Below are positions 28,309 to 50,753 of a stretch of DNA of 64,000 bases, one piece after another. The stretch is from Polytrichum commune (Eukaryota > Streptophyta > Polytrichopsida > Polytrichales > Polytrichaceae). A program made the position numbers and the translations under genes. Where the stretch lies: assembly GCA_950295325.1 (NCBI GenBank), contig OX485808.1, forward strand, positions 2,422,501 through 2,486,500. The letters are read 5' to 3'. How positions within the stretch are numbered: position 1 is the first letter of the stretch; each line of letters begins with the position of its first letter. Under the pieces are notes generated by a model. The model did not search any database. It saw nothing but the letters and a program-made list of their open reading frames with translations, and was not told the DNA's origin.

Positions 28309-28336
28309 AACACTATATTAAACATTTCGGGACTTT
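28309..28336 (+). repeat. left terminal inverted repeat of giant element
   Basis: 28 bp, exact reverse complement of 50,754-50,781; target duplication GTAT immediately outside at 28,305-28,308. Confidence 0.9.
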
Positions 28337-28376
28337 CGGGAGTCCCAAAGTGAAGATTTTTTTACATTTTGGGGAC

Positions 28377-28670
28377 ATGGGAACATATTTATTGCTCCCA
28401 GGAACATGCAACTAGCTTGTGGGAACGTGGGAACAATGAATTTAGACCATGTGAATGCCAGATGCGCACGTGGGAACCTATGTATGGGAACGTTAAAGCG
28501 AACGCATAAACGCTCTATGGGAACATGGGAACGATATATGGGAACATGGGAACGATATATGGGAACGCTGGGAACGTTCTATGGGAACGCGGGAACGCTC
28601 TATGGGAACGTATGTGCGCACTGTGGAACGGGGGAACAAGAAGACATTTTGTGGCTACATGGGAACGGTG
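28377..28670 (+). repeat. left subterminal TGGGAAC repeats
   Basis: Fourteen exact TGGGAAC motifs in about 290 bp, many as ATGGGAACG or in pairs eight to nine bases apart. The right end has two copies on the opposite strand (50,694-50,700 and 50,705-50,711). Inward-facing short subterminal repeats are typical transposase-binding sites in CACTA and related elements; here that role is inference. Confidence 0.75.
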
Positions 28671-29127
28671 TGTGGTCGCGGCAGGGTAGTGTGGTTTGCA
28701 AACGTGATAGAAGGGGTGTTTGTGGTGTGCACAGTGACAGACCGAGGGCTCATTAATACAAGTAAACCCAAACCCACATCCAAATACAAAGGATAGACCT
28801 TGCATTACATACTTCAAAGTTCAAATTACAACACTTCACATTAGATAAATGAACCCACCCTCTATAATGCTGGTGGTTTCCATTAAGAGTTGCACGGGTA
28901 CACCGTGCCCACAATGGGGTTCCATTTAGCTGCATAGTGTTGAAATCAACAAAATTTGCACCCACATGTCCGAGAGGAGCCATGATGGTCTCCCATCGAG
29001 GAACCACCCCAAAAAAATTAGTACCAATCATTGGAGTATTTGATGTGGTGTCTCACATTGTCAAGGAAATCACATCTAATCATGAATCATTGTGTGACGA
29101 CTACGATGTGGGTTTTCCAGTCTCGCA

Positions 29128-32100
29128 TTACGAGGAAGGGTTGCCCCGAGCTCCCCGTCTACCAGTTGCACGGCCACGACCTCGAGTTCCATGTCCACCC
29201 CCTACATTTCCACGTCCACGACCTACTCGTCGCGCACTCGGCACATCAACGTCCTCCTCAACCGCCATCCCTCCGCGCTCTTGCGCAGAACAACGGCGAA
29301 GGTTGTCTTTGGCAAATTCAATCTGCTCTGGTGGAATAGTAATCTTAAGGGGCTCAACATCTTCATGTGCAGGTAGAGGCCATGCTGCCAAGATGCAGTC
29401 AATTGGTTGCCAGTCGGGGATGGAATATTTCGAATCGGCTTTCCACTTGAAGTTCGTGTTGGAGTCCCAACCATGGTATTTCTTTGTTATGTCTCTAGCA
29501 GTTGAAGTGGGAGTGAACCATTGTACCAGAATCTGACGGGGATGGTCCCCAGTGACGTTCAAGTTTGGTGGACACAAAGCTCGGCACACCCAAATGGGTC
29601 TATCAATATCTTGATCTTGGGGTCGAAGAATGAGGAAATGCCCCTCATGCACGTTGTCGGCAATGCGGAAAGCCGGTGCAGGTCGAAGGTTAGAGGGGCC
29701 CACATAATGGTCATCTGGTTGGTGTTCCTCACGAAGTTCACCAGTACTCATGAAAGGATGTGCGTCCCTTTCGATTCGGGAGGATGGCCAGAATCCCTCC
29801 TGGAGTGCCAATCCCGCAGTGTACACATTTGTGAGGGGTGCCCGTAATGCCTCCAGTACCCCAGTCCAGTATTGTAAAAGATGTGTTTGTGAGCCCCTAT
29901 ATGCTCCGGTCATGTCATGGTCACATATAGATTGCCAGTAGTCAACAAACCCTTGCAACCCAACAAGAACATCGTCCAGTTTTGCCATTTCTCGAGGTTT
30001 AGCAGGGTAAGGTTCCCCAGGTGGGAAAATTGGCTCCCCCTTTATGTTGGATTTCCACATCAATATGCCATCCTTGGGCAACCATTCATCATGCGTACTA
30101 AGCACCTTGTAATGCATGACGGGCCAACCATCATCCCGTACAACAAATTTGAATTGTTGGGCTTTCGTATGGCCAATGAGTTTGTCTTGGCCATCAGGAA
30201 TGTACTCACTAACAAAAGCCCTCCAATCTGGAAGCTCCTCTATCATATGTGGGATGATAGGGACCTTCTCCATGTCCATGTATGATTTCATGAGCAAGGG
30301 GATAGTGGGGTAATCATGTTCACGCAAGTCCATACTCCATCTACCAAATGAAGCGTCAATGTCGTCATGTGTATGACCAACTAAAAGGTAAGACACGTGG
30401 ACCTCTGTGAATATACCTTTGGCCGTGAGCATGGACCAAAATGCCTTCACATATCTACACTTGTTGTCCTTCCAACAATTATCGAGTTGAACATGCAAAA
30501 CGGGTGGAAGCGAGACAGCTGGAATAGGCTCACTAGGTGGAGGTCGTAATCCTGACAAACATACATCACTCCCCTGAAGAACAGCACGATAAAGCGGTGA
30601 CCGACCCGCACCATGGAATAACATGCGAGATGATGAAGCCGGGGGCTGTTCCAAATCGCGAAGAAGCCTCGCAAATGAGCCCACAGTATGGTTGCAATCA
30701 CCAGGATACAAATCCAATGCATAATGAGCATATCTCTCATCTCCATGGCCATGAGCCATCATGCCTGTCACGGAAAGTGGTAGTTTCGTGAACATATCAG
30801 TGTCTTTGTTCTTGTTAGCAAAGCATGGAGATGCAGTTTTGCCATGGTCCATTTTGTCGTGAATGATGGTCAAAACCTTGCGCGGATGCTCAATGGACAA
30901 CGCTCTCATACAACGGTAAGCATTACGAGCGGATTCTTGCTGTGCCTGGTGCTTCTCCAACTGCTTGGAAAACCCGGTGTGTGCGGCAGAACCTTTAACA
31001 TGTTGAAGAATAATAGCCATAAGTGAATCGCATTTCCCACAGCGAGCAAAATTGTCCCCTGCTCTTTTTGTCACGTAGTGCTTAAAATAATTCTGTCTTA
31101 TTTGGCTCAGAGTCGAAAGAGAGATTGGTTGCAACCCACATTTGTCATTCACCTGAATATCATACCACATACAACATTTAGACAGCCACAGAAATGAGAA
31201 CACCTGGATTGAGGCAATCACTAACAACACATTGAAAATGGACTAAGTGGAACATCGGGAGCCTACTAACCTGGTTGATTGTAACTAAAAATTTCTTCCA
31301 TTTTGTGCCGCGAGGCAAGACCATCTCCACTACTCGAGTACCATTAGGCAAAGTGCGGGATTTATGAGGCATCATGTCCGCTTTGTCCTCTAAGAGGTTG
31401 GAAAGAGTGGCAGTGGCTTGCTGAGTGGACACACGATACCGTTTGGTGTTCAAGTTCCCATGGTCTCGTGGTCGCACCCCACAATTGAACTCTTGTCGAT
31501 TTCTGTAGAACGCGGTTTTTGAAATCACAAATATGTGCCTCCATGCGATTAGGCAAATATCACGTCCACTAAGTGTTACCACATTCGTATGCCCCCCCGG
31601 AAGTGGATGTACTTGTCCGTGGACCTCAAGACGTTTTGCATGCCTCATCCTTGTGGAGCAATCATAAAATTCAGTTCGAAGAGCGAGAGCCTCATCTCTA
31701 GGAAAGAATCTAAGGCACTCGCGATCACAACACAAAACTGCAGATAGTTGTTGTATGCTTGCATTGGTTAGTATTTGGGATTTTTTCGTTGGCTTACGAC
31801 GCTCTGGTATCCTGGATGTTTCATACGCTCTCTTCCCGTCCTTCCTTCGCTTCTCCAGCGACTTGGTTTGTGCCCGTAATCTGTGGCCACTAACAAGGAG
31901 ATGATGTGCCAGAGTGCAACCACCGTGGAAAACACGAGAGATTGGCCACGCCCTCAAAGCAAACATGGCCCCCATGTCCATCATGCCATGAATAGGCTCC
32001 ATTATTAGTACACCAACGTGATCAGGTCCCAAACATTTGTCTTCCACGCAGTCAATTAGGTTTACATTACGGCAAATTCCTTTTGCCATATTGTGTCCAT

Positions 32101-32321
32101 GTTCATTCACAAGCATAACAGGCTTGTTCACCCAATCATCCCTACGAAGTCCACTGCAATTCGGGTCAATATCTTCAACCGGAACAGTTTCATCTTCCGA
32201 GAATATTGCGTCGGAAAGGGATGACCCCTGCACAAACACTTCATTAGTAAAACATATTCCAACAAACAATGTGAAACATCTTAGTTTAGAAAACCACCTC
32301 TGTGGTAGATTCCGCATCCAT
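29128..32321 (-). CDS. DUF7869-like protein, candidate transposase, 3 exons
   Basis: Exons on the minus strand: 32321-32298, 32227-31271, 31152-29128; both introns are GT-AG and all phases 0, giving about 1,001 aa without a stop. The start at 32,321 follows from splicing out 32,297-32,228 and gives an acidic N-terminus; an earlier start is possible. Visible parts: a basic region with a CCDREC cysteine motif, HDKMD (aa about 425-429), HVQLDNCWKDNK (D551), VGHTHDDIDASFG (587-593) and a C-terminal RG/GRG-rich tail. I recognise the pattern as the DUF7869 family of plants and other eukaryotes. The spacing of D, D and D resembles an RNase H-fold DDE nuclease, which with its position in a TIR element makes it the likely transposase. 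That function is inference; the family is formally uncharacterised. Confidence 0.75.
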
Positions 32322-32543
32322 GTGCTCGGCCAATCTGCACAAGAACACTTGCGCGGTCAGTGTTACAACTTAGGCCTGATATAGCTTCACGTACCATTCG
32401 CTATTGAATCATATTAGTGCTTGTACTCGCAATCACCAAACGTTTAAACTAAAAACACAACTGTAGATATCCTAAAGAACGAAAACTTCATCCTGTATTA
32501 TCTGCCTTGTGACCTCACTAGATATCACCTATATCACCTGTTA

Positions 32544-32637
32544 CAATATGTCGTGTATGTGGCGCGGGCATGCATCCCACTTTCACTCGATCGAGTGAAA
32601 GTGGGATGCATGCCCGCGCCACATACACGACATATTG
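32544..32637. repeat. perfect 94-bp palindrome containing the core motif
   Basis: Positions pair without mismatch around the centre 32,590/32,591; the arms run from CAATATGTCG to the core half-site CACTTTCACTCGA. It lies about 220 bp upstream of the predicted DUF7869 start codon. Such a sequence can extrude as a cruciform and is usually unstable. Confidence 0.95.
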
Positions 32638-32854
32638 GGCCCTTCATGCCTTTTCTTTTCTCAGAAAATCCGGTCATAAATAGATGTTACCCAATCTATC
32701 CCACCCGATTAACACCTACCTCCCTCTATACATATTATTTGTGTCGATAATAAAAACGTCGATCACCAAACAATCACATCCTCTCCCCAGAAACTAATCA
32801 CATCCTCATCCCCAAACAATCACATGTTCATCCCCATGCAATCGACTCGCCAGC

Positions 32855-32985
32855 CCACTTTCACTCGATCGAGTGAAAGTGGTGGGCCTGCCAGCGCCGC
32901 GCCACAAAACTTTCACTCGATCGAGTGAAAGTGGGCTGGCGAGTCGATTGCAGGCCCACCACTTTCACTCGATCGAGTGAAAGTG
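32855..32985. repeat. palindrome cluster A (3 copies, 52-bp period)
   Basis: Cores centred at 32,868, 32,920 and 32,972; perfect palindromes of 28, 24 and 26 bp built on CACTTTCACTCGA and its mirror. With the 94-bp palindrome this makes four copies upstream of the DUF7869 gene. The spacer between copies 3 and 4 is an inverted copy of the sequences flanking copy 2. Confidence 0.92.
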
Positions 32986-34037
32986 TTGGGCCTCCCAGCG
33001 CCGGTTGTTCGGGCCGTACTGTACGGACTGCAGGGATGGGTACAGGGCCCCGCAAATATGGTGCCGCTGCAATGCTCCATGCATATGGAACGGCACATTG
33101 AACAGCGCCTCTTCGATCAGGTGTTTCTTGTTGTGTAGGACCGAACCTTGTGAAATTGATCCCTGGAAGGGATAGAAAGAAGAATGTTGTGGTGTTGTGC
33201 TCCCTGGCACAAAGGGCGACAAAAGAGGGTTCGAGTGTGCTCCTTCCAGGCTTATATAGTCGGGTGTAGCAGAATTGGTGGGAGAATAGTGCCCTAATCC
33301 AATTTTGAAGGTTCCCTCCCTTTCGTTTTAGGCCGTCACAGATCCGTATGCGGACGGCTTTTGATGCCTTTGGGTGGGTTTTTACATGCACCTTGATACA
33401 ATTGTGTTAGTGGGATTGTTTTGCATTATTTTCGGCATGATGTGTTTAAGCCAATCCGGTCCACCCCCAATCCTGTAATGATAGTTAGCACATCGCCCAC
33501 TCTTGGGCATCACTACTATGAGCGCGTACTACCCGCTGGTACGCCTTTGGATCCAAGTTTGATTGATGAGATGAAAACACGCCAGAATGTGGTCCTATCA
33601 ACAGGTACCCTCAGCCCACCACTTCCATCGCACTTGTGGCATCACACCCTGCTATTGAGGCGCGTACAACGTTGAGGTACTCACAAGCGCTCATTGTCGT
33701 TGCAACCTACATTTGTGCACCGGCTTCAAGGTTGAAGATATTTGCACCCCTAGACCTTGAATCTCTTGAAAAGAAATGGATGTCCCCAACATGTCATAAC
33801 AATTACAATTAAATCATCGGCCCTCATCCCAACGTATCTATGTATGCTTGTAGTATTGCAGATAAATTGCCATGCTCCCAATGCTATCGGAGTGGTTTAT
33901 GGCACCCCGATGAGTTCTCCTTCCGAAATTCATATTAACTATTTCAATATTAATCCAAAATTAATTATTATGTGGGTGGGTCCAATTTCCAATTACAATG
34001 TGCTTTGCACATCTCTCAACATTGACATAATGTCTTA

Positions 34038-34326
34038 ATAACTTCCCAAGAGGTTAGTAACTTCCCAACTTCCCAATAGAGGTTACTAGTAACTTCCCAA
34101 TAGAGATTAATAACTTCCCAATAGAGGTTAGTAACTTCCCAATAGAGATTAGTAACTTCCCAATAGAGGTTAGTAACTTCCCAATAGAGATTAGTAACTT
34201 CCCAACTTCCCAATAGAGGTTACTAGTAACTTCTCAATAGAGATTAGTAACTTCCCAATAGAGGTTAGTAACTTCCCAATAGAGATTAGTAACTTCCCAA
34301 CAGAGGTTAGTAACTTCCCAATAGAA
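34038..34326. repeat. tandem array of about 21-bp units
   Basis: About thirteen head-to-tail units of TAGTAACTTCCCAATAGAG with alternating AGAGGTT and AGAGATT variants and two longer interruptions. The minus-strand ORF across it (YWEVTNL repeats) is an artefact. Confidence 0.9.
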
Positions 34327-34582
34327 GCAAATTAGGAAGGGGCTTATTAACCCCATTATAGTAACCCCATTGGGCTTATGGGGTTCAACAATTCATAAAT
34401 TAAATTGGAAGAATTTGAAATTTGCGCCTCCAACTTCATCTGAGGATGCCGTCTCGAATTGACCCTAGACCCTTCTACCCTATTTAACAATTAGTCCAAT
34501 ACCCTAAATGAAAGGTGAAAAGTGCATGTGTGGGTTAATATTAGTGAAGATTGAGTAGCCTCTGGAGGCCCATCAGCCTACT

Positions 34583-34611
34583 TAAACCCTAAACCCTAAA
34601 CCCTAAACCCT
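34583..34611 (-). repeat. interstitial telomere-like CCCTAAA repeats
   Basis: About four consecutive CCCTAAA units. A TTTAGGG block in the opposite orientation follows 1.25 kb to the right. Confidence 0.85.
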
Positions 34612-35862
34612 ATACTCGAAGTACCACTTTGGTTTGCATTTGAAGCAAATAATGAATGGGCTACCATGATACAAAACCAATCCCAAATATATTTGATATT
34701 CATATTAAGTGCTATGTCTGAATCGGTTGCTTCCACCATTGGTCACACTTTTTACATTATTTTGTTAGGTCCAATAGCTAAGTCATAGTCTAAGAACTCT
34801 AAAATGATTTGAATCAGCTGATCAAACTAGTCAATTTAAAGCGTTGTCTACATTTGAGCACGTCGTAAGTTAATCTCATCCTAACACGTGTTCATTTAGT
34901 GTTCCCTCATAACTGCACGTATTACAAGCATACAACTCTTGGACAATTGATCTGCGTTAGTGACAAATATAGGTGTTTAATTAAGAAGCGCGAACATAAG
35001 GCCCTCAAACCTTAATCACCATGTGTCCAAGTGTCTTCGTGGCAATAATGCATCCAAATAAATGCATGGCTTGGACCCTGTAGGAAGCAGTTACAACACT
35101 GGCCATTCCCGCAAATTCCTGTGAGCATGCCACGTGTCACATATCTTCACATCATGTCTTCAAAAGTTCACGCCCAAGCAGTTGCTCTTGCAATGGTCGG
35201 AGTCAATTGTTGAAAGTGCCTATATTGTTCGTAATTGGGAGTTCACCCATTGGATCTCCCCTTTATGACCTCTCCACTTTCCTTCCATCCACACTCATAA
35301 CCTTAGTACGTGTAATTAGGTTGCCTTCGCAAATGGGTAAAGTTGTGTTGCCTCTTACATCGCCTCTTTACGCAAGCAACTTTCCATAGGTCAAACTCGG
35401 ATCAAAAACCTTATATTAAGTTTTTTGGTTCATTCCTATCACAATTAAAGTCCATACAAAATTTGTGTATTTTGTTGTACTGGTAATAAATAATCAAGTA
35501 ATGTGACATGCCAATAGATTAGTGCAAGACTACCTAATTGCCAATATTGGTGTAGGTAGATTCATTGGCATTTATTTGAGCTACTAGTCTAAGAGACAAA
35601 TTGAATCCAAACTTAAGTTAGAGTTAGAGCAAACCAAGAGCTACCTCAATTGATGGAAACAGGGATTTGAGTATATTTGGATTATGCATTAATTTTGGAC
35701 AACACAACTGCCTAGTAGTATATGGCGTGCACTAGATTGGAAAACTACATGAAATTAATATAATGGTGGTTGGCAAATATGGCATACATTGTCAAACATT
35801 TGAAGTTGTCACTGATTGTTGTGTTGTCACTCCCACTCCAGTGCGCAATAATTGTGAACTTT

Positions 35863-35893
35863 TTAGGGTTTAGGGTTTAGGGTTTGGGGTTTA
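35863..35893 (+). repeat. interstitial telomere-like TTTAGGG repeats
   Basis: About three and a half TTTAGGG units, one with TTTGGGG. Together with 34,583-34,611 it forms a convergent inverted pair; the outer flanks are also loosely similar when inverted (GGCCCA...CTTAACCC). Confidence 0.85.
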
Positions 35894-36650
35894 TGGGTTA
35901 AGTTATTTAGTGGGCTCCAATCTGCCTTTGAAATCCAATGAGCTCAGTTATGTGCAAAATGCAAGGGTGGCCATTACGAATGGAACGGTCATTTGAAGCT
36001 CCAATGTGGTGTTTTGAAAAATGGGGTAACGTTATGGTCACTAACCTTTCACCATTTAAACTAGTGATCAATCTTGGGTCAAGTAACATAGTGACATTTC
36101 AAACATATTGGCATAAATATGCTTACAATTCAACCTACAAGCCTCAACCCTCCATCCTAAACATGCACTCTAAAAACTAAAACTCTATGCCTGAACCCCA
36201 AGTTCTAAACGTTACCCCTAGACAATGAGTTTAATATCTAGCCGACGTTGAATGAATCATATCATCGTGACGAAGGCCACAAACCTATGCATTGGGGAGT
36301 CAAGTGTTCCACATGTTGATGGATGAGAGTAAACTTGTCAAAGCATAATTATTATACCCATAAGAAGTTTACACATTTGGTATGACACTAGTCGTATAAC
36401 TAGTGTTAGACATAAATGTGCCACCACCCTCCCTACGACCATGCACCTTCTCTTATCTTTGTTAAGAAATTTTCACATCCTTACTAACACTAAATTTGGG
36501 CATGTGACTTACCATAGTCCAAGTTTAGTGTTTGAGTTCACAATGAATGTTACTTACTTTCATCTAGGGTTACTAATATTTAGTGTATGCGTTCGTATTT
36601 TGTGTATCTAACACTAAATATCACTAGAGTGGGTTGGGACATATATGCAC

Positions 36651-36794
36651 CACTATAGTTAACTAATCATTAATAGGTCAATGATCATGCACAAATAATA
36701 TCATCGTGAACTAAACCTTAAAGGTCAGCAATCATGCACCACTATAGTTAACTAATCATTAATAGGTTAGTGATCAAGCACCACTATAGTTAAC
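36651..36794 (+). repeat. ACTATAGTTAAC motif, three copies
   Basis: GTTAAC starts at 36,658, 36,747 and 36,789, each preceded by CACTATA; two of them are embedded in a longer direct repeat ending AATCATTAATAGGT. Confidence 0.8.
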
Positions 36795-38096
36795 TAGGTT
36801 CTGAGAGGATTGTTTATTGCGCACCACTATTCACCACTTAGTGTAGTTAGTGGCGTTGTAGTTGCCACTATTATTTAGTGGTAGAAGGTCTCGAATACTT
36901 GCCAGCAGATTGCCTACTAGTAGGCTTATGAAAGTGCACAATATTAATATCGGATGGAGGGCTAACCCTTGCGACACCCACTTTCACCATATGTTATAAT
37001 CAACACAACAATAACATAACATCTGTTATGTTATTATAACCAACAGACAACCTTAAAGTTTACCACCTTGCAATAAAGAAGTTCAACCCAAGTTAACTTA
37101 TGCGTAGTACAATGAACACACGACATCCTTACACCGTCGCGTAGGCCTAAGGTATAGACACCCATAACCGATAACGCACCCATCACCGACAAGTAGACCT
37201 ATGCATGAACGCGCATGGCTTAAATTAGCAGAAGTCGATGTTTTTATATTATAAACGTGAGGACCATATGACTTCGTGGAGGGGAAGTTGTCGAAATAGT
37301 TGTTGTCGGTCATGGGTGAAGCTATATGTTGGTTATGGACTCTAACCAACTTTCATGTTTGCAAAATTTGTAGTAATTCTAACTTTACTTAATCAATTTT
37401 GAAAAAAAGCTCGACATTCATCATGGACATTATTTTCCTACGCAGAAAAATTAACTCCTTCTTGATAACCGAAGATATGCTATGCTGAAATTCTTAAGTT
37501 ATCGGTTATAGGTATAATATGTACCTTAACTTAAATTTAGGGGAAATCTAGATATATTTAAAGATCCTACTACAGGCCACCGGTCCCTCTATAAATGTCC
37601 GTGAAGGATAGAAGATTTCAAGAGTGATTTAGATTGTGAATTTCTTACATCTTTCTACTACTGCTTTCTTGTTGTCCTCGAGATTATCATTGATACATTC
37701 TATTAACCTTGATAATGTCACCCTTGGTAATAGAACACCTTAAAGTTTGAAACCGATTTTCTTAGTGTAAAACTCCCTTGTTATTATCCCTATCATCCTA
37801 GACAATGCCACTATCCAAAATCCAAAATACATCCAAAATACTCCAAAATACTCGAAAATCCGTAGTGTGAACGTTATAATATCAATTATGGATGGATTGT
37901 ATGTGATGGTTGGATGGACAGATTGTAATAGCCAAAAGGGTCATGAGCCGCCCCCTGTGATAATGCAATGCTATTCACATGGTCATGAGCCGCCCATGTG
38001 CACCAACTTTGAACGGTGTTGTCTATACACGGCACTCAAAGGTGTTGTATGGGACGGCACTGTCAAGACTTCAGACCTTAAACAACTGCCAAAATA

Positions 38097-38700
38097 ACTA
38101 GAGTTAACTAGAGTTTTTTCAAGACATTAGAAAACAACTATAGTTAACTAGGAAATTTTCAAACCAATTTGAAGAACAACTATAGTTAACTAGAAATATT
38201 TAAGACCATATTAAAAAACAACTATAGTTAACTAGAAAAAAATTCAACCAACTACAACTTGAGAGTTCCAAAAAATGTAAGGAGTCAACCAACAAGTTAT
38301 TTCATTTTTGAATTAACGTATATTACATAACTTCTATAATAGACCTTATGTTTGTCACCCATGAAGGCCCATCCCAAGAAGGACTAGAACCCATTATACT
38401 CTAAGTAACTTAGACATAATGAAGTCATCATCATGATGCTCATTGGGTGTTGATTGAGTGCGGATCACAACTGGAATCAAGTCCCAAATTTAAATTTTGA
38501 ATAAAAGAGAAGGAAAATATATAGATGCTATGATCTGTCATGGTACTACACTACAGGTTGTGCCCAACTTTAGTTAACTAGATATAACTATAGTTAACTA
38601 GATTTTTTGGCATACCAAAATCAAAACAACTATAGTTAACTACATTTTTTGGCAGGTCAAATCACAAACAACTATAGTTACGAAAGGCAACTAGTTAACT
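38097..38700 (+). repeat. ACTATAGTTAAC motif arrays, about 42-bp period
   Basis: GTTAAC starts at 38,103, 38,143, 38,185, 38,227 and again at 38,573, 38,593, 38,635, 38,694, with a degenerate GTTACG at 38,677. The symmetric context AACTATAGTT/AGTTAACT recurs while the intervening A/T-rich sequence differs. No coding frame. Confidence 0.85.
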
Positions 38701-40942
38701 GATAGTTGAATTAGTTGGTTAGTTGTCCAAGGTCTGCAAGACTTCTCGGCCTCTAATATGCATCCCACCTTCCGTCACATGTGTTCACCTAATATGTGTC
38801 TATGAGGGTTTCGGCTTGTGTGAAGTAATTTGGGATGTTAGTTAAGTTCTACGGTTAGGTGAGCTGGTCTAGGTACAGAGTAAGTGTCGACTTAAGCTAA
38901 ATTAGTTCAATTGGTTTGCAGTGCAGGTGTTATTCGTTGTGTTGTTGTTTTTGTTGTTGTTGCTACATTGGAAGCTAGTGATTCCATGGAAGAAGACCCA
39001 TTGATTGTTGATAGCAGTCACTGTGATGACGAGTCTAAAGTAGTATAGCTAAGCGATCATGCACAAAAATATGCTAAAGATGTTTTGAATTTTATGGTTA
39101 GCCAAGGTTTTCAGATTTTCAACACCCAGGAGTTGTTAGGAATGGAAAAAATCCATAACAAACTCATTAGAATTGGTGTTGGACAATAAACATCACTAAA
39201 ACAATGTGACATTAGAAGCTCCTTTGTCTCTAGTGAGAGGTCTTTACCTGGTCTCAATGACAGATTATGATGTGCTCTTGCTGTTATTCACAATTTTGAA
39301 TTAGAGTTTACATGTAAAAACATTGAAGTCTTGTATTTGTTATTTTCTTTTTTTACATTGAAATTTTATTTTGATTGTCTACCTATTTTTTTTGATAATA
39401 TCACATTATGCACAAATCTTCAGAATGTGACATTATCAAATATGACACCTTCAATGCTTATATCACACTTTATGGTGAAACGGATGCTGTGATATTATCA
39501 AGGTTAGACTGTACCAATATGTTGAAATGTCAGTACCGTTTCAATATACTCAAACATCAATGTTTCATTATTGAAATTATTATTCTATCTTTTCACCATG
39601 TGTGTTCTTTAAGTTTGGTCTCACTTATATTATAATAGTATTGAACATCGCTTAAATGATAAACATGATAATGTGCACTTTGAACAAAAATTTCAATACA
39701 TACATGAAGGGCAATTTTTGAGCTAACCCTTCATTTTGAAAGGGAAAATTTTAAGTTACCCTTCCTTATGAAATACAAGCAACCCTTCAAATTTATTCCC
39801 TGACACTAAACACCATAAACAATGTAACAATACTTATTGAATGCAGGGCCTAGTAAACAAATTAAACTTTTTAGGTTTGATCACCCCACCTTATTTTTCA
39901 CTCGGAAATTAAACTCAAGGTTTTGATGATGATTTCAAGACAAAATTGCTCAGAAAAGAAATATTTGGACTACAAGGGAGCGCTAAATTGTCGTCCAAAG
40001 TATTCCAATGTGCTACTCTCACTGTCATAATGTAGATTTTTCAATTAATATTTTTGCTTAAACATGTTACTTATGTTGATGAATTGTATCATATGGGCAA
40101 TTAGTAGGCTAGCCTTGACACTTTGAGACCCCGCCGGCATCTAGTTTAGGCCCTTCGCACATTGTGCACTTGACACTAAACATCATAAACGGTGTAGTAC
40201 CTTCTTACATGTGGTGAAATATATATGTATATGAATATGTATGTGTATATGTATAATTTTTGAGCTGCATATATATAGGTCCATTCAACTGAATCGTTTT
40301 TGAGAGTAGAGATTATCAACGTTTCAATACATAGTACACTCTTTTAAACGTGTCTTCTTGATGTTTGCTCTTTGATCCTCACTGAACCCCATACCATTCA
40401 AATATAGGGGTTTCGGTTTATGTACCAGCCAAGCGGTGGCGGTGGCCGTATCATATCTAAATTGAACCATTGTGATGGAATCAAGCCATTTGGACGAAAG
40501 CTCATTTGGTAAGTTAAGTGAATCATAAGTGAAAGCACCAACTAACATCATACAGTTTGCAATCAATACCCTCTACAGTTAGTAGGAAGTACCCTTCCTA
40601 CTAACCCACACCCTCCTTAATGAGAACGGGTGAAACTACACCCTAGCCTACTCGTCCGCCCATCATGGTCCGGCGTCTAGGATCTGGGCCGTCCATTATT
40701 GACGGCACAATCCTGACCATCGGCACTTGGGCGAAGGGACGTGGCCGTTCCCAATCTTGGGTCCAGAATGACCTCCCCCGCTCAACACTTTCATTGTGTT
40801 TTCTCCTCTTCGATCCTAGTGTTTTCTCCTCTTGGTTCTTCCGTTGCAATATTGTGCACCCTCTCCCTCTCCGCACCCGGCTCCAAGTGTATTATGCATT
40901 TGCCTTCGTCTATGCTCCTTGCTTCATTGAAATTGCTGATCT

Positions 40943-41122
40943 AGTATGCACCTTGCACCTTGCTTCACTGCCATCCGGTTGATCTCTTCTAGTATGCACC
41001 TTGTTTCATTGAAATCTGGTTGATATCTTGTAGTATGCACCTGGTTCACTCCAATCTGGTTGATATCTTGTAGTATGCACCTGGTTCACTCCAATGTGGT
41101 TGAGCTCTGCCTCTAGTATGCA
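40943..41122 (+). repeat. tandem AGTATGCACCT repeats, about 41 bp
   Basis: AGTATGCAC starts near 40,943, 40,991, 41,032, 41,072 and 41,114, with shared CTCCAATCTGGTTGATATC between the middle units. It lies about 0.9 kb upstream of palindrome cluster B. Confidence 0.75.
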
Positions 41123-41948
41123 CATTGCTCAACAATCTGCATCTTCCTTTTTTCAATTCACAATCTGCATCATATCTCCCTTTTCGCACATTCCTCCACC
41201 CTCCTGAAGTGCCATCCACACCTGGGATCCACTCAGTATATCACAAAGAGCATCCTGGTTATGTTTATTTCATTGAATGCATTTTGCTTGACGTTTTTCT
41301 ATACATTAGGCACCCTGAATTCTTATTAAGAAATCTTCTTTTGTTTGTTCCATCTCCATGGATTCGGGATGTTCACCCTGATACTCTTGATTTCTAAAGA
41401 GTATGCACCTGGAGCCTCCAAGTGTATTAAGTCAATTTTCGTGTTCCACATTGTTTGTTTGCTATGCTTCATTGAAATCTTCACCCCCAGCATCCTAAAT
41501 TTGTTCAGTGCAATCGGCATCTTGAATTTTCCTTCGATATGCTCACTTTTTGAGGTATTTACAACTGGAACCTAATCACATTCTGGTTTTTCTTTTTCAA
41601 TCCAGGCCCCTGAATCCTTGCAGCATAAGCATTCAGATTAGCCATATTCCTGTACACAATATTAAATAACCTCCATCTTGATCCATGTAGCAAGACATGG
41701 TATTGGTTTCTACAGTAATCAGAACTTATGTAAAATCCCCACTCCTGCTCTTATTGTTGATTCCAAGTGAAGGTCGTGCAAGCAGAGACTGAGTAGCAAA
41801 TATACATCCATACTCTTCACACATCAGGTACACTTCCCGGCTTGCATTGAATGTCAAAGACATAGAAATAAGAAGTATATTTCAAGATATAGTGGTGGGA
41901 AATATCCCCGTTCACACCTGACTGTACGGACACTCTTCAGGGTTGGAG

Positions 41949-42428
41949 GCGCTGGGCCACTTTCACTCGATCGAGTGAAAGTGGCCCAGCGCTGGCGTGC
42001 TGGCTGCCTGAGCCATGGCTGGCCACTGGCCACTTTCACTCGATCGAGTGAAAGTGGCCCAGCGCTGGCGTGCTGGCTGCCTGAGCCATGGCTGGCCACT
42101 GGCCACTTTCACTCGATCGAGTGAAAGTGGCCCAGCGCTGGCGTGCTGGCTGCCTGAGCCATGGCTGGCCACTGGCCACTTTCACTCGATCGAGTGAAAG
42201 TGGCCCAGCGCTGGCGTGCTGGCTGCCTGAGAGCCATGGCTGGCCACTGGCCACTTTCACTCGATCGAGTGAAAGTGGCCCAGCGCTGGCGTGCTGGCTG
42301 CCTGAGAGCCATGGCTGGCCACGGTCCACTTTCACTCGATCGAGTGAAAGTGGACCAGCGCTCGCGTGCTGACTGCCTGCTTGTGCCATGGACAACCATG
42401 GCTCACTTTCACTCGATCGAGTGAAAGC
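41949..42428. repeat. palindrome cluster B (7 copies, 73-77-bp period)
   Basis: Core centres at 41,970, 42,043, 42,116, 42,189, 42,264, 42,339 and 42,416. The first is a perfect 44-bp palindrome, the sixth 34 bp, the last 22 bp. The spacers are near-identical (CAGCGCTGGCGTGCTGGCTG...CATGGCTGGCCACT). The cluster ends 72 bp before the composite-gene ATG, and a splice acceptor (CATACCATTGCAG) lies between, so it may sit in a 5'-UTR intron. Overlapping ORFs here on both strands (repeating FHSIE/LSLDRVKV) are artefacts of the repeat. Confidence 0.95.
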
Positions 42429-42500
42429 ATTAATGTTGAGTTGAGTGATGCATTAATGTGGCTTGAAGATTAACTTATTTCACATACCATTGCAGGAGGC

Positions 42501-45500
42501 ATGGACAAAGTTGTTTTCTGGACAGATATAGTTGGAGTCAAACAAACAGGACCAACTGCTCAATGGGTAATTAGAGACTCTCATTTGCAGAAGTGGTCGC
42601 TGGCCATTAACAAGAGAAACAAATCTTCAGGGTACGAGCTTATATTTACGTACAAGGTAAACAATAGTTGGATTCCGAACCCTGGAAATCCAATTACCAT
42701 CGCTCATGTGGGAGCGAGGGACAGGCTAGAGGTTTCGGTTATGGAGGGGGTGGAAGAGAGAATTTTATCAATTGATTGCAAGAAGCATACATTTCTCTTG
42801 GTGCCATTTTATGAGTCCATGGCCTCATTCCCTTCGAAGGAGAAGGAAGAGATAGAGAAGGTGATGTCATCTGGAATATCCAAAAGAGCCATAAACTTTG
42901 TGTTGGAGACACTGGAAGACATCAACAGTAGAGAGGCAGCTACACGGGAAGAATCAAGGCAGCAAAAGAAGAAGCAAGCCGAGGTTATACTGAAATCCAA
43001 GGCCGATGAAGGTGGCAGCTCTATTGGACAACAGCCGAAGGCAAAGAAGGGGAAAAAACCTGAAGAGCTAACCGCATCACTGGAGACGGAGAGAAGGAAG
43101 CCTCACGAGGTGGTGCCCCACGTTTCTACAGATTCTCAGAACACGGAGAGGGATGCTGGGGATGCCGGGAGTGGAAGGAAAAAGAAAGCAAAGAGGGCTT
43201 TGTCACCCGAGAAGAAATCAAAGCAAAAGAAAATGAAGCCCGACGTTGTTATGCATGAGGAAACCCCACTGGTCTTGACTCAAGCGGAGAAGGGTCGAGT
43301 TATATCGCAAGGTCAACAACCCAGCCTTGAGGAAGCTGCTCTGGATAGGAAGAAGTTTTTGCAACTTTTTGGGCACATTTATCCATTCGGCGCAGAATCG
43401 ATATTCCGTGTACCCATCAAACAAATGAAGGGCGCAAAAGCTTATCAAGTTACGCGGCCTTTGGATCCAAGTGGGGTGAACCTCATGAAGAACTACCTTA
43501 TCCAAACCCCGCCTGCTTGGCCTCAGCACAATCTGTGTTTGATGCCGAAGTTCAAGAAAGGTGAGACATGGCAAGAAGGCATGACATGGGATGACATCAA
43601 GAACATGCAATTCGCCATAATCAATGGGCAACATACTGTAGCCGCATCTACGGAAATAATTGCTCATCGAGATACCGATCCGAAGCTCAAGGAGAAGTTA
43701 AAGGTGTGGCCCTGCACAATTGTGTGGACAGAGGATCCGAGCATGACCGTCAGGCTTTCATATACATTGAACAATTCGAACTCGTTCAACAAGTTCACAC
43801 CGACATGGACTACACAAATTCTGTATTGTCGCAGGGTTTGGGTGAAGTTGAACAAGCCCGAAAAGCAGCGTGCGAACGCCTCTGAGGCTACACAGGACCC
43901 TGAGAAAACATTGGCTTGGAAGGTATGTTACTCTGCTCCCTTAATTCATCAGACCTCAAGTGTTGACATGACCTCACACCACTTTCACTCGATCGAGTGA
44001 AAGTGGTGAGGCGCACCTAAAGTGTTGACATGGCCTCACACCACTTTCACTCGATCGAGTGAAAGTGGTGAGGCGCACCTCAAGTGTTGACATGGCCTCA
44101 CACCACTTTCACTCGATCGAGTGAAAGTGGTGAGGCGCACCTAAAGTGTTGACATGGCCTCACACCACTTTCACTCGATCGAGTGAAAGTGGTGAGGCGC
44201 ACCTAAAGTGTTGATCATGCAGGCATTGTAAACCATTGTATCCTAAACCAATGTATCCTATATCCATGATGTGCAGAACTTTACTACCAGCATGGAGGCA
44301 TCATTCACCGCAATCGCAAGAGGGATCACGCATAACGATCTTAAAGCGGAACTCACGTTAATTATGGCCCCTGAGGAAACATCAAGATTGTGGAAGAAAG
44401 TGTTCATGTCGCACGAGAAGGGCTTATTTATCAACCCGGACAAGCCAGGACGCACATACCTGGAGGATCATGTGGAGGCTCAACAAAAATTGCGAGCTCG
44501 CCACGAGAAGTCCAAGGCAGGAACACCCTTCGTGGAGAAACCTTTCGTGACTAAACCCCTTACAAGGGAGACATTCAAGAGTATGTCAGGACTCACAAAG
44601 CCAGACTTTCACCTGGCAGCGAGACGGCTTTTAGAAGGGAGGGGAGAGGACGACGTTCCTAGTGTCACTCTCAGGCCTTGCAAGAACAGCAATGTCGTGA
44701 CACTGAAGTCATGGTGCAATTTCCGCAAGTGGAAGAATATCTTGCTGCAGGAGTTGGATAAGCGGGATCCCAATAAAGTTGGCTTGTGGAAGAAGGATGA
44801 TGAGGGGAATGGGTTCCTGGATCGCGACGTATGGACAAAATTCAAACGGGAGCATGGAGTTACAAAGCCGAAATGGGTAAAGCTCTACCAGGTTGCGACT
44901 TCAGAGTGGTTGAACAGGAAGAGGGCGACTAACAACAAGTCCTTACCGGTACAACCGGCTTTAGACCGATTGCTTCGCGACTGGCTGCAAACAAATTTCA
45001 ACGAATGCACAGGGCAAGTGATCACGCGGTGGGTGTCACATAATGCCATTAAGAAACGATTGGTGATTCCCAAACAAGATTCCAGTGATGTTGAGTGGAT
45101 TGAGGGAAGCACCATTGCCGCGGGGTTTCTGGACTTCAGGTTCATCCCTGGATGTGTAGATGAACCAATCCCTCCTGAAGTTGTGGAGTCCTTGGTTAAA
45201 TACTTGTGCTCTCCGGAATGGACACCAGGGGTGAAATCTGTTCCAGCTTGGATGATTATCTCCGACTTGCGTAGCCATGATGCCTCGCTCGTATTCATGT
45301 CGTCGCTTATGCGCAGACATCCCAACACGTTTGTGATCGTCCCGTCGTTCTATTTCCCTTGTCCTGCAGAGGAGATAGCCGACCCCAAAGAAATAGTTGG
45401 AAAGAGGCAAACCCCTGCCCTCTACATCGACCACCTCATTGTCCCAGATAAATTTCCCAGGTGGAAGGTAATTGCATGTCCAATGCTAGCCCCGGATTCG

Positions 45501-48500
45501 CGCCGATACAAAGTAAAACCCAAGGATTGGTCTGAGTTAACATATGAAGTGAATCGAGGGGAGCTCAGAATGGAGGTCTATATTAAGTTCTTGGAGTACA
45601 TGGGTTCCGCCGGAGGCATGGTTCTCAATCTATTTGGGGGCTTGAAACCAGTTGCTGCAGCGTTGGTGAGTTCTACCTATCTGAACAATCTCAATTCGTT
45701 CCCTTTCACCTCTTCCCTCTTCCATTTATCTAACCTCATTGATTTTCCAGATGCACGATTACAACGTCTTTTCCTACATGGATTCGGCATTCTTGCATAT
45801 TCTGGACGCGTTGATTCAACGTGTTCGCGTACTTAAGCTGAAGGATTTCGCTGAACAAGCCGAAGATGAAGATGAGTACCAAGCCCACGATGGCCACATT
45901 CACCCTGACCTCAACCCAGATCCACCCTTGCTTTTGGTAAGTATTGCTAATGAATTACTTTCTTGTTTATGAAAATCATCGTTTTCTCACTTCCCCTTTA
46001 TATGAGATGATAGTTGACATTGTATGGTTGCTACACAGGAGGATGTCGAAGATCGCGAACCGATCGAGGCCATGGACATTGACCGAAACCCCTCCGATGT
46101 GGAAGATCTTCCTGACGATGAAGATGACGAGTCTGTGGAGCCTCCAAGTGAACGGGATACCGACGTCGAGAGCCATGGCGAATCCCCCCACACGTCCCAT
46201 CACTCGGACGATGATGCCCCTGGCGGTTTGACTCCGTTGGAAGAGCATATGTCGACTGCCTGCGATCTCGGTGCTTCGCCGCTACGAGCGAAGCAACTTG
46301 ACTTCGATGACGAAGACCGCGATGACCAAGACCCAGCTGACGATGAAGACCAGGAGGATGAGGACCAGGAGGATGAAGAACACCAAGATGAGGACCAGGA
46401 TGTCGAAGAAGAGGATCAGGATGCCCTTGAGGAGGATCAGGATATCCAAGAGGCCCAGGATGTCGAAGAGGAGGTCGAAGATGTCGATGTGGTTTTGGAG
46501 TCCCCTCGTTCTATTCCCGACACCTACCAACCTCCACAGCCTGCTGCACGTAGTCCACAGAGACCCAATACCGCCGAAGTTGGTGCTAGTGGGTCCATGG
46601 ACATTCCACATAGTCCCCTCAGACCCAGTACTGCCGATGTTGGTCCTAGTGGTGCCATGGACATTCCACATAGGAAGTCCTCTCGCTCACGAAGTCGGTC
46701 CTCAACTAAGGATAGGCATAAACGCCGCCATGGTAAGCCCGTGGAGCCCCCACTTACGACGGCTGTTTTGGAACCTCTCATGATGGGCATTTTGAATAAA
46801 AATTTACCAGGCTTGCTAACGAGCTTGTTCAAGGATGCCATGGCCCAGGCCATGCCACCCTCTCAAGTCGTGCCCACGCCAATTCCTACTCCGGCCACTG
46901 TACCAGCAAATGCGGAGGTTGTTTTTGTCCCCATTGGTACTGACCCTTCCCAAGATGTCCTTCCTCAAGTAAAGCCAGCTCATGTGGATCAACCGGAGGT
47001 TGCTGAGAAATCGGCCGAGAAGAACGAAGTGGAAAGTTCACCTGCAGATGCCGGATGCCTGGAGGGGCCTTCACATGATTCCCAGCTTGTTGAAGATGAG
47101 GTAAATATCCTTGACCTATTCTCGCTTTTCCAATTGTTTTTAAACATGCTAGTCACTGAATCTCCGCCGGGATGTTTGATCCAGGTTGGAGGCCGCGCAT
47201 CATAATCAAACCACTTGGAGAATAGGAAGCCGTTTGTAGATCGCAATCCAAGGCTGACTAGAGCATTGGACTTAAAAACCTTTAGGACATTTTAGTTGTA
47301 GCCAAACTCACCATGTACTGGGTATTTGGAAGATGTACATTTTACATTCAATGAAATGTGTTTCGTCTATACATTGTCTGCAATGGCTGTCATTAACAAT
47401 GCATGTTCAATTCACAGGCTGGTTTGCAAATCGTTGATTTCACACGGCCAGAATCACCATGTGCAGCAGTCCCGCAAACGGGTGCAGCCGAAGAGGACAC
47501 CTCACTTATAGTTGGCCCCATGCAAGCCCCCATTGCCACTACATGTCGAAGTCCAACGCTTGTCGTCACCCCTTTGGACAAAGGGGATCGTTCACCCCTC
47601 TTGCCCATAGGTAGTGACGATGATGTGGTCAAGTCGCCTTCACCCACAGCGGTCCACATTGCTGCCATCAAACCTCTTGCTCTGAAGCAGGCTGTCATCG
47701 AACATTCAGAGCCCGGGTCATCATCTGCAGGCCTGCAACAACCAATGTCACCACCTTGTTACTGTACTGCTACCGTGGAGCCAACGGAGCCTTCCTCTTC
47801 TGCAGGCCCTTGCCAACCCGAGGCTCCACATTGTGAGGAGCATGCTGTCGTTGATGCAACGGAGCCCGCTGTCGTCGATCCAACAGAGCCTTCATCTTCT
47901 GCCGGCCCACATCATGTCAAGAAAGTCGTGGAACGTTGGCCACGCGACGACAGGTTCCCCGACTTTCCCCCTGACAATACAAAAATAGCCGAACGTCCAT
48001 TTGAGGCTTGGCGGGCTATGCACGCCAGCCGTTCCGAGGTCACTTGCCCAGAGCTGCGTGTGCGGCCAGCTCTCCCAGTTTGTGTAAGCATCGTTTCCCC
48101 TTCTCATGGCACTTAGTTTGTGTAAGCTTCGTTTCCCCTTCTCATGGCACTTAGTTTGTGTAAGCTTCGTTTCCCCTTCTCAATAAAATTTCACTTGGTC
48201 CACTGGATTTTCTTTTCAATATACCCGGTTTATTTGTGTCCCAAACATTCATCTCCGCGTAGTTTTGGGTTCAGGGTGGACAAAGTGCGCAAACGACTGT
48301 GGATGCGCCCTTCAACCCACACGTTGTTTATGATAAACTTTTTGTTTACGCTGACAACTACCCAACGTACGATAGGAACATCTCTCAAGTTTTCACGAGG
48401 GAGATGGGAATAGCGTGTGCTAAAAGACTTATTTCTAGGGACCCTCAAGACCCTTCAGTAGGACCATCGGATCGCTGGGAATTCAATCCCATAACTTTCG

Positions 48501-49473
48501 AGGTATTGGTTTCCCAGTTCATAATAACTTTTAATATTTAGTTCATTATAAACCCCCATATCAATATATGCACCTATTGCATATATGAATGTAAGTTAAT
48601 GAATATATGAATGTAAGTTATTGAATATATGAAGTTCCACAATTTTCATTAGTTGCAACATTATATGTAATTCGAGTAAAGCAGGAGAAGTTGACAGTGG
48701 ATTCCTGTCGCCAGGCGCTAGCTGCTGTACCCGACCGAAGGTTCATTCTGGTGTTCGATTTGAATGGCATATTTTGTCATTGTATTCCTCGCGGCCGTTC
48801 CGCTTTACCCACATGGATGGTGCAAGATCGTGCGCCAGACAAGGGTCCGGCGATTGTCGGTCCCAAAGCTGTCCTACCTAGACTGGGTTACAAGCACTTT
48901 TGGGAGAGAATGACCCAAATGTTCTATGTTTGCATATGGTCATCTATGAAAAAGTCCACTGTGGACCTCGTGGTGGAGTTTTTATTCAATGGGATGTCAA
49001 GACCTGCAATAGTTCTTGGCCAGGAGGATTGCATCACATTCAAAGACATCTGGGACAATGAGATCAGGAACCCCCTAAAGCCAGAATCAATATTGTTCTT
49101 CAAGAGTTTAAACAAAACATTTTGGTGGCCGCCTGTATCTCTTGATTCCGGACGTGTTACTGCCACTATTGAGAACACTGTTCTTGTGGATGACAGCCCC
49201 TACAAAGGTGCTTGTAATCCTCCCGGGAATGTATTGTTTCCCGATTCCTTCACCACCAACAAACAGGCAACTGCGGATATGAGAGCAATTCTTCTCCCCT
49301 ACTTCCAACGTATGTTCAATTCGACAATGAGCGACGTACGCGATTTTGTGATCACACATAGATTTGGGCAACAGCCGGTCCCGCATAACGATCCAGTCAG
49401 GGAGTCACTTATGATGGCCAACAAGCACTCCAATCGACCCGACTTGCACCCTATAACTGCTGTCCCAAGATAG
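42501..49473 (+). CDS. giant composite protein: ParB-like, FGG motif, acidic/RS region, FCP1-like HAD domain
   Basis: Exons: 42501-43922, 44277-45665, 45751-45936, 46039-47100, 47418-48083, 48275-48502, 48685-49473; all introns GT-AG and all phases 0, giving 1,913 aa. Order: unknown N-terminal domain (1-145), Lys/Glu-rich linker (about 150-270), a segment (about 298-453) with IFRVPIKQMKG and AIINGQHTVAAS resembling the ParB/Srx fold (DGxHR-like motif), a long unknown region, then GGMVLNLFGG (about 921) recalling motif I of N4/N6 DNA methyltransferases, an Asp/Glu-rich run, an RS-like stretch, Pro/Ser repeats, and an FCP1/NIF HAD domain (FDLNGIF, D1676; VDDSPYKGACNPPGN, about 1820). The HAD part is the surest. 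The ParB and methyltransferase readings are inference; no DPPY-type motif was found. Nuclear function is likely from the charge pattern. Confidence 0.75.
43977..44194. repeat. palindrome cluster C (4 copies, 62-bp period) in an intron
   Basis: Core centres at 43,992, 44,054, 44,116 and 44,178; the first is a perfect 32-bp palindrome extended by CACC/GGTG. Units differ only at AAAGTG/CAAGTG and similar single bases. The array lies wholly inside the first coding intron (43,923-44,276) of the composite gene, between good splice sites. Confidence 0.95.
48080..48190 (+). repeat. triplicated 38-bp segment carrying a 5' splice site
   Basis: GTTTGT|GTAAGC recurs with GTAAGC at 48,084, 48,122 and 48,160, in three tandem 38-bp copies. 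The first ends exon 5. Using the second would read through the first repeat (an in-frame TAG lies at its end), so the first is preferred. Confidence 0.85.
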
Positions 49474-49556
49474 TTAGCATGTAGGGTTTAGGTTAGGGCA
49501 TGTAAGGTTCATGAATTGTATGGCATGTAACATTGTGTATTATATGCTTTGTTCAG

Positions 49557-50356
49557 TTTCCTCCTGCTGGATACACACCATCCACTTCCAAGCGATCGGC
49601 ATTCGTGTGTCTCACCCCGCGGCATGAACACAACGTAGTACTGGCCTGCCATCCCTTCTCACTCGCCCACGTGGGCGTAGAAGCTATCCGGGTCGCTAAC
49701 TCTCAAAGTGTGTCACCCCTCACTGAAGCAACCCCTGAAGGACAGAGTCTGGTAAATATAGCTCATTTTGTTCACCTGGGAATGTTCTTACCCAAATAAA
49801 TATTTTGCAAATCTCCTTTTCAATCTCTATCTAATCTCCAACATTTGGCGTGGAATGTATGTGCATGTATATGAATGTTGGTGGTATTTGTGGGGCAATA
49901 AGTTGGAGAATGTTTTTTGCCTATGTCGGCCTGCAGGATGTTGACCTAAATATGCTCCCCCCAATGGATGACGGACCACAACCCGCCCATACATTATCCA
50001 TTATGCGCCCCACCCCTACCCGCGAGTACCAAATTGCGCTAATCGAATCGCAAGGCCCTGACTCAAGAGGTGTTCGTCTTCTACGTGCTGGATTGGCATC
50101 ACTTGGGAAGACTTATGCCCCTCAACCCGCCATGACGAAGCTCCCTTCCACCATTAACCATGTGGAGGGCGTTGACACCAGTATGTGCACCCTCGCAGAT
50201 GCTTCAACACCTCCATGCGGAACTTTGGCCATCGTGCACCCCGCTGCTACACGGGACTACCAAATTTCACTCATCGAATCTCAAGGCCCTAATTCAAGGG
50301 CAGTTCGACTTTTGCGGGCTGGATTGGGTGACCGTGGAAATAATCGTATCGCTTGA
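49557..50356 (+). CDS. two further exon-like frames, possible alternative 3' end of the composite gene
   Basis: 49,557-49,751 (preceded by TTGTTCAG, followed by GTAAAT) and 49,937-50,356 (preceded by CCTGCAG, ending TGA) read in phase 0 as FPPAGYTPSTSKR... and DVDLNMLPP.... The second frame contains an internal duplication: REYQIALIESQGPDSRGVRL and, about 72 residues later, RDYQISLIESQGPNSRAVRL. Codon quality and splice sites look real. They could join the composite gene by splicing from a donor inside its last exon (for example GAC|GTACGC at 49,336, phase 0), which would bypass the TAG at 49,471. Otherwise they form a small separate gene whose start is unseen. No known domain recognised. Confidence 0.5.
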
Positions 50357-50713: not shown

Positions 50714-50753
50714 GCGATCTCAATGGACACTCCAGAAGTCCCATATTGACGCC

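What the first reader, a model, noticed from the sequence alone, without database searches (positions are those of the whole stretch)
32544..44194. Fifteen copies of one perfect palindrome in three clusters confined to the giant element
The half-site CACTTTCACTCGA joined to its mirror recurs 4, 7 and 4 times, nearly invariant, while the spacers of the three clusters are unrelated to each other. I noticed none outside the element. Invariant cores with cluster-specific spacers suggest selection on or conversion of the palindrome itself, for example a binding site for an element-encoded dimeric protein.
Basis: partly seen in the sequence, partly recalled or inferred. Interest (0 to 1): 0.92.

Follow-up and report, generated by a model that had tools for sequence, protein, structure and literature searches.

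The report
Lineage-specific palindromes in a giant plant transposon
A 22-kb jumping gene in a plant genome carries many copies of one short mirror-image DNA word near its own genes, and related lineages carry their own spellings of that word, which suggests a private address read by a protein the element itself makes.

Summary
Fifteen palindromes (core CACTTTCACTCGA|TCGAGTGAAAGTG, 13 exact) lie in three clusters: upstream of the putative transposase gene, upstream of the second gene, and in an inferred intron of that gene. The element is a 22,473-bp transposon (28309-50781) with 28-bp inverted repeats and a 4-bp target duplication. The exact core occurs 183 times in the 408-Mb genome (0 in the reversed control); 155 were placed by reading, all in copies of this family.

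Relatives make it more interesting. In 30 copies of the second gene's first exon read with flanks, a scan with no sequence given found 214 long palindromes; 211 share a CKCGnnCGMG centre, 3 differ by one letter, none lies in the exon. Lineages at 56-68% protein identity have their own core, changed on both halves; two divergent transposase promoters carry their lineage's diagnostic letters too. Three relatives at 26-28% identity have two palindromes with another half-site in the corresponding intron.

Best reading: operator-like sites for an element-encoded, two-fold symmetric DNA-binding factor that co-diverges with its sites, working like VANC anti-silencing or autoregulation. Binding and factor are not shown. 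Hairpin function (RNA or cruciform) is the main rival, because pairing extends beyond the conserved core.

The parts
28309..50781 (.). Complete giant DNA transposon (22,473 bp)
   Evidence: 28-bp perfect terminal inverted repeats, flanking GTAT on both sides; three further copies whose two ends were read have identical ends and TSDs TATG, TTAT, TTTA
28309..28336 (+). Left terminal inverted repeat AACACTATATTAAACATTTCGGGACTTT
50754..50781 (-). Right terminal inverted repeat
29128..32317 (-). Putative transposase gene, spliced, DUF7869 domain
   Evidence: Pfam PF25273 E 4.8e-40 on the 700-aa exon; no Pfam hit on the 379-aa exon
32544..33002 (.). Cluster 1: four palindromes (cores 32578-32603, 32856-32881, 32908-32933, 32960-32985), upstream of the putative transposase gene
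41949..42429 (.). Cluster 2: seven palindromes (cores start 41958, 42031, 42104, 42177, 42252, 42327, 42404), just upstream of exon 1 of the plus-strand gene
42501..43922 (+). Exon 1 of the second, multi-exon gene; N-terminal 170 aa confidently folded; ParB-like motif INGQHTVAAS recalled, not confirmed
43923..44276 (+). Inferred intron (GT...AG) that contains cluster 3
   Evidence: open frame joins EKTLAWK to NFTTSMEASF; no transcript evidence
43978..44193 (.). Cluster 3: four palindromes (cores start 43980, 44042, 44104, 44166), 62-bp period, inside the inferred intron
44277..45665 (+). Exon 2 of the second gene (boundaries inferred)
   Evidence: 30 metagenome relatives among 8000 scored candidates
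48691..49470 (+). Open frame with NIF/FCP-like phosphatase domain, same element
   Evidence: Pfam PF03031 E 5.9e-10

Best explanation
[quoted passage not shown] Shown: the element's boundaries, three gene-adjacent noncoding clusters, invariance of an 11-13-nt half-site against changing spacers, a centre of two base pairs that varies in some lineages, and lineage-specific letters changed in both halves. Inferred: a trans-acting element protein reads the site, so protein and sites diverge together. Its most likely role is to keep the element's own promoters open (anti-silencing, as VANC does for VANDAL elements) or to autoregulate them. Perfect flanking arms of varying length are explained as by-products of template switching and unequal exchange at the palindromic core.
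For: Exact core 183 sites genome-wide, 0 in reversed control; general core CTTYCWCTCGNNCGAGWGRAAG 420 sites, 0 in control. 30 of 30 exon-1 copies read with 1.5 kb flanks carry at least two sites; 214 palindromes found without a given sequence (arm 11 or more, centre 0-4), 211 with centre CKCGnnCGMG and 3 with one changed letter, 0 in exon 1, 0 in three sets of mononucleotide shuffles. 247 of 250 half-site contexts (both halves of a palindrome counted) have a mirror partner two bases away, with up to 3 of 10 mismatches allowed, and 228 of those 247 agree at diagnostic positions 8 and 6 (CA/CA 78, CT/CT 79, TA/TA 71). In the window's lineage letters are 0.96-1.00 alike up to position 13 and 0.69, 0.48 at positions 14, 15. 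In the copy at C2:23.2 Mb (86.8% DNA identity over 1.9 kb) cores are kept while cluster-2 spacers are replaced. Two divergent elements carry their lineage's letters at positions 6 and 8 upstream of the transposase gene too (L054, L055). Three distant copies (26-28%) have two palindromes TACGAACGnnCGTTCGTA or longer in the corresponding intron.
Confidence: 0.6

Rival explanations
1. Hairpin function: the palindromes act as stem-loops in transcripts (splicing, RNA-binding or small-RNA precursors) or as DNA cruciforms, so pairing rather than the letters is what counts.
For: Cluster 3 lies in an inferred intron with a predicted fold of -169 kcal/mol (no shuffled control run). Perfect arms reach 58 nt in relatives and pairing outside the core is compensated. 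In the intron, mismatched pairs are sense-strand G-U 15 times against 2 antisense; upstream it is 13 against 9.
Against: Letters, not just pairing, are invariant across clusters with different flanks. Of the 15 intron G-U cells, 10 come from related tandem copies in L040-L043, so independent events are few. Five distinct intron sites in L041-L043 keep an A.A mismatch at position 6. Clusters also lie upstream of both genes.
Confidence: 0.22
2. Mutational by-product: palindromes and tandem arrays are generated by replication slippage and template switching and have no function.
For: Copy number varies widely between near-identical copies; arms of varied length are perfectly symmetric; template switching alone can mirror a change from one half to the other (established knowledge, not tested here).
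Against: It does not explain why the same letters recur in clusters with different spacers, why the conserved stretch ends at 11-13 nt, why none of 214 lies in exon 1, or why relatives at 26-28% identity have two palindromes with other letters in the corresponding intron.
Confidence: 0.1
3. Transposition sites: the palindromes assemble the transposition complex, like the subterminal repeats bound by TNPA in En/Spm.
For: Element-specific repeated motifs that diverge between subfamilies are known from CACTA elements (PMC2613891, passages read).
Against: The clusters are internal, 4.2 kb from the left end and 6.6 kb from the right end, and sit at genes.
Confidence: 0.08

Closest known systems
VANDAL elements with VANC anti-silencing proteins (Arabidopsis; PMC5735166, PMC10398659)
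   Same: Element-specific short motifs, often tandemly repeated in noncoding regions, differing between related elements, bound by an element-encoded protein that is proposed to co-evolve with them (passages of PMC5735166; abstract of PMC10398659).
   Different: The VANC motifs in the passages are 8-9 nt, and the main text of PMC5735166 holds no word beginning palindrom; here the site is a long two-fold palindrome, the element has a DUF7869 protein, and binding is untested.
En/Spm (CACTA) TNPA and its subterminal repeats (PMC2613891)
   Same: Repeated motifs bound by an element-encoded protein; motifs diverge between subfamilies, likely together with that protein (passages read).
   Different: Here the clusters are internal and gene-adjacent; inverted repeats start AACACTA, the TSD is 4 bp, and the Pfam scan of the two exons gave DUF7869 and no CACTA transposase domain.
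Sola superfamily DNA transposons
   Same: 4-bp target duplications, AT-rich in Sola2 (passages of PMC3627910 read).
   Different: Transposase kinship was not tested; palindrome clusters are not mentioned in the passages read.
Bacterial ParB/parS (recalled)
   Same: Clusters of palindromes beside a gene with a ParB-like motif (motif recalled).
   Different: No Pfam ParB hit and no confident fold for that region.

Membership tests
VANDAL/VANC anti-silencing system | Element-specific motif repeats in noncoding regions that differ between related elements | tested here: met
VANDAL/VANC anti-silencing system | Mutator-type (VANA) transposase | tested here: inconclusive
   Only DUF7869 found in the transposase exons; no direct comparison with VANA was made
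VANDAL/VANC anti-silencing system | Protein binds the motif and removes DNA methylation | not testable with these tools
   needs ChIP or DAP-seq and methylomes
En/Spm (CACTA) | 3-bp target duplication and ends beginning CACTA | tested here: not met
   4-bp TSD in 4 of 4 copies whose two ends were read in simple context; the rearranged C2:23.2-Mb copy, with mirror-image flanks, was left out; ends begin AACACTA
En/Spm (CACTA) | These repeats lie in the subterminal regions | tested here: not met
   clusters 4.2 and 6.6 kb from the ends; separate repeats at 28509-28610 near the left end were not studied
Sola | 4-bp target duplication | tested here: met
   GTAT, TATG, TTAT, TTTA
Sola | Sola-type transposase | not tested
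   no Sola profile or sequence was compared
ParB/parS | ParB-fold protein | tested here: inconclusive
   no ParB family among Pfam hits of 30 members up to E 1; AF2 not confident there
Ordinary satellite | Copies in unrelated genomic contexts | tested here: not met
   155 of 183 exact sites placed, all in copies of the family; 28 not placed individually

The most novel reading that the evidence does not exclude
Each lineage of this element carries a private two-fold address word at its promoters and in an early intron, read by a ParB-like clamp encoded by the second gene that loads at the palindromes and spreads along the element to keep it open: a eukaryotic, transposon-borne analogue of ParB/parS whose specificity has been rewritten several times.
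Probability: 0.06. Interest if true: 0.95.

Novelty: new variant of a known kind. Interest (0 to 1): 0.76.

Why it matters
It offers a natural series of diverging sites and elements inside one genome: the window's core, several related cores and one largely different one, each with its own candidate proteins. That makes it possible to ask directly how a selfish element rewrites the DNA word by which it recognises itself, and whether anti-silencing by motif repeats, reported for Arabidopsis VANDALs (PMC5735166), also arose in other transposons.

Tried and rejected
Viral and prokaryotic collections: exact core 0 in viral contigs; inner 22-mer 0 in prokaryote genome contigs; protein-guided scans found no relatives there.

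Back-translation of intron read-through tails of metagenome relatives as a palindrome test: of 38 tails, only P0047 (52 nt) and P0008 (28 nt) exceeded the largest value of the shuffled-tail and exon-piece controls (20 nt). The tails of P0003, P0006, P0009, P0019 and P0022, which I had read as palindromes by eye, did not; the genomic loci replaced this evidence.

PDB sequence search with both exon profiles: best E 0.17 and 0.7, nothing significant. Pfam with both alignments: nothing credible. ParB reading of exon 1: motif recalled, not confirmed. A methylase-like reading of exon 2 (FGG motif, recalled) got no fold test, because the structure queue stayed full. Literature: DUF7869 0 papers; the listings of broader searches showed nothing on this element. 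The TIR pattern search of the genome did not complete. The count of TTACGAACGnnCGTTCGTA genome-wide was not obtained.

The site finder behind (centres) and 121 fixes most of positions 2-5 and asks for 9 of 10 pairs, so invariance and pairing there are partly by construction; others (no sequence given; one half only; no shuffled control was run for it) are the fairer tests. In one search six sites were labelled in-exon because tblastn ran into the intron in L030, L033, L034 and L037; with the exon end fixed, one search gives 0. One search stopped at its second locus for a missing file; one search read that locus.
Full report
Observation. The half-site CACTTTCACTCGA occurs 30 times in the window (up to 2 mismatches) and always as a head-to-head pair, against 1.2 expected from shuffles. 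That gives 15 palindromes in clusters of 4, 7 and 4. Thirteen have the exact 26-mer and all 15 share the inner 22 bp. Symmetry often continues beyond the core, up to 47-nt perfect arms at 32544-32637. In cluster 1 the left flank of the second palindrome and the right flank of the third are mirror images over 44 nt (pair I3), as if an older long palindrome had been split at its core.

What carries it. The clusters lie inside a transposon, 28309-50781 (22,473 bp), with identical 28-bp inverted repeats. Four copies whose two ends were read have 4-bp flanking duplications: GTAT in the window, and TATG, TTAT and TTTA at C1:63.19, C2:57.18 and C3:1.96 Mb. A fifth region (C2:23.2 Mb) is rearranged, with mirror-image flanks, and was left out of that count. 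A minus-strand gene encodes a DUF7869 protein (E 4.8e-40), the putative transposase. A plus-strand multi-exon gene encodes a large protein; its first two exons have no Pfam hit and 30 relatives each among 8000 scored metagenome candidates, none with a Pfam domain listed; further downstream an open frame has an NIF/FCP-like phosphatase domain. Cluster 1 is upstream of the DUF7869 gene, cluster 2 upstream of exon 1 of the second gene, and cluster 3 in the intron 43923-44276 (splicing inferred from the open frame).

Genome-wide count. The genome (408 Mb, 64 contigs) holds 183 exact cores and none of the reversed control. Reading places 155: 132 in 16 exon-1 loci, 8 in the two C2:23.2-Mb copies, and 15 in five first clusters. 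The remaining 28 are close to the 27 expected from nine further near-identical copies with three exact cores each, but were not read one by one. The general core CTTYCWCTCGNNCGAGWGRAAG has 420 sites and 0 controls. Only the first 50 places are listed, all on C1: 46 fall within about 11 kb of an exon-1 match, and four (C1:21351725-21351990) lie about 28 kb from the nearest.

Relatives. The exon-1 protein has 87 scored matches in the genome, a lower bound: 14 at 98-100%, four long or partial ones at 87-90%, further long ones at 56-68% with many fragments, and three at 26-28%. Of the 46 best rows, 45 have a DUF7869 exon in divergent orientation within 35 kb, and 40 have one within 16 kb. For the 30 best matches the DNA with 1.5 kb on each side was read. 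A scan for palindromes with arms of 11 or more and no sequence given found 214; 211 have the centre CKCGnnCGMG, 3 differ from it by one letter, none lies in exon 1, and three sets of mononucleotide shuffles give 0. Every one of the 30 loci has at least two. Six (L041-L044, L046, L047) have none of that length downstream of exon 1; with a relaxed finder only L044 has no downstream site.

Lineage-specific words (positions counted outward from the centre). The window's lineage uses ACTTTCACTCG with centre AT; the clade L040-L044 and L047 uses ACTTCCACTCG with AT, as does L053, which falls next to the window's lineage on a long, unsure branch; L045-L046 use ACTTCCACTCG or ATTTCCACTCG with centre GT/AC; L048-L051 use AACTTCCTCTCG with centres CT/AG, AC, GC and GG/CC; L052 uses GGTTCCTCTCGG with variants (tree). 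The centre is AT in 149 of 149 sites of the window's lineage and 44 of 44 of lineage 2, so it is free only in the others. Half-sites were then searched on their own: 247 of 250 distinct contexts have a mirror partner two bases away (up to 3 of 10 mismatches allowed; each palindrome can count twice), and in 228 of 247 the letters at positions 8 and 6 agree on both halves. Conservation in the window's lineage is 0.96-1.00 up to position 13, then 0.69, 0.48 and 0.65 at positions 14-16, and rises again to 0.94 at position 21, so the spacers of clusters 2 and 3 share a little outside the core. The copy at C2:23.2 Mb (86.8% DNA identity over 1.9 kb around exon 1) keeps the core while its cluster-2 spacers are replaced.

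The three places. Upstream of the DUF7869 gene, the element of L049 has GTTTCCTCTCGGCCGAGAGGAAAC and TTCCTCTCGGCCGAGAGGAA, and that of L043 has GGATCCACTCGGTCGAGTGGATCC, TCCACTCGATCGAGTGGA and GATCCACTCGATCGAGTGGATC. Both carry the letters of their own lineage at positions 6 and 8, but differ from their other clusters further out. A third attempt (L056) missed the gene and says nothing. Within gene two, upstream and intron sites agree in L048-L052, but in L040 the intron sites read GTTCCTCTCGA where the upstream sites read CTTCCACTCGA, and L041-L043 have intron sites with one half of each kind.

Distant relatives. All three copies at 26-28% identity (L057, L058, L059) have, in a short GT...AG stretch that starts GGAAG|GTGAGT next to the end of the exon match, two palindromes with half-site TTTACGAACG or TACGAACG and centres AA, TG or TA. 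The spacers of L057/L058 and L059 differ. Their upstream sides were hardly read, no shuffled control was run, and L057 and L058 each also show one unrelated 8-nt inverted repeat. With that reserve, place, two-fold symmetry, two-base centre and the CGnnCG heart persist while the rest of the word is different.

What stands against it. Pairing continues beyond the conserved letters and is compensated there. Intron sites show more sense-strand G-U than antisense (15 against 2; upstream 13 against 9), though 10 of the 15 come from related tandem copies. A hairpin role therefore stays open at about one in five. Template switching at a palindrome can by itself create longer symmetric arms and mirror substitutions (established knowledge), which weakens symmetry alone as evidence of selection. 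It does not explain identical words in clusters with different spacers or the persistence of the intron site. On checking, I lowered the best reading from 0.62 to 0.60 and raised the hairpin rival from 0.20 to 0.22, because of the fixed centre in two lineages and the differing words within some elements.

Novelty. Motif repeats read by an element's own protein are known; a long palindromic version in a DUF7869 transposon, with several lineage words in one genome, did not show up in the listings of the searches made. The host is taken to be a plant from TTTAGGG-type repeats in the window; its name is not known to me.

Noticed in passing
window 36641-38690: A second repeated motif, about AACTATAGTTAACTA (itself made of overlapping palindromes), ten copies of a 19-nt unit, partly spaced 40-42 bp, inside the same element between the two genes (families D8-D15).
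   Followed up: no
window 28509-28610: Tandem GGGAACG-rich repeats just inside the left end, a possible subterminal repeat region.
   Followed up: no
window 34583-34612 and 35862-35899: Two short telomere-like arrays (TAAACCC, TTTAGGG) in inverted orientation inside the element.
   Followed up: no
window 34029-34325 and 40954-41129: Further tandem arrays (21-bp and 40-bp units) in the element's central part.
   Followed up: no
window 48691-49470: An NIF/FCP-like phosphatase domain carried by the transposon.
   Followed up: no
genome C2:23190000-23222000 and C2:23272000-23279500: Two copies in opposite orientation; in the first, three end sequences in 32 kb and mirror-image outer flanks, suggesting an inverted duplication or nested insertion.
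   Followed up: partly
genome, 38 of 108 DUF7869 matches at 42-45% identity: Further DUF7869 exons with mostly long open frames, many with the same score; 0 of 38 lie within 35 kb of an exon-1 match: perhaps another branch of transposons without the second gene.
   Followed up: partly
genome C1:21351725-21351990: Four palindromes, three of the lineage-2 type and one with mixed halves, about 28 kb from the nearest exon-1 match; element not identified.
   Followed up: no
window 21888-24700: Exons that by eye look like the C-terminal part of a plasma-membrane proton ATPase (recalled resemblance, no search), upstream of the element.
   Followed up: no
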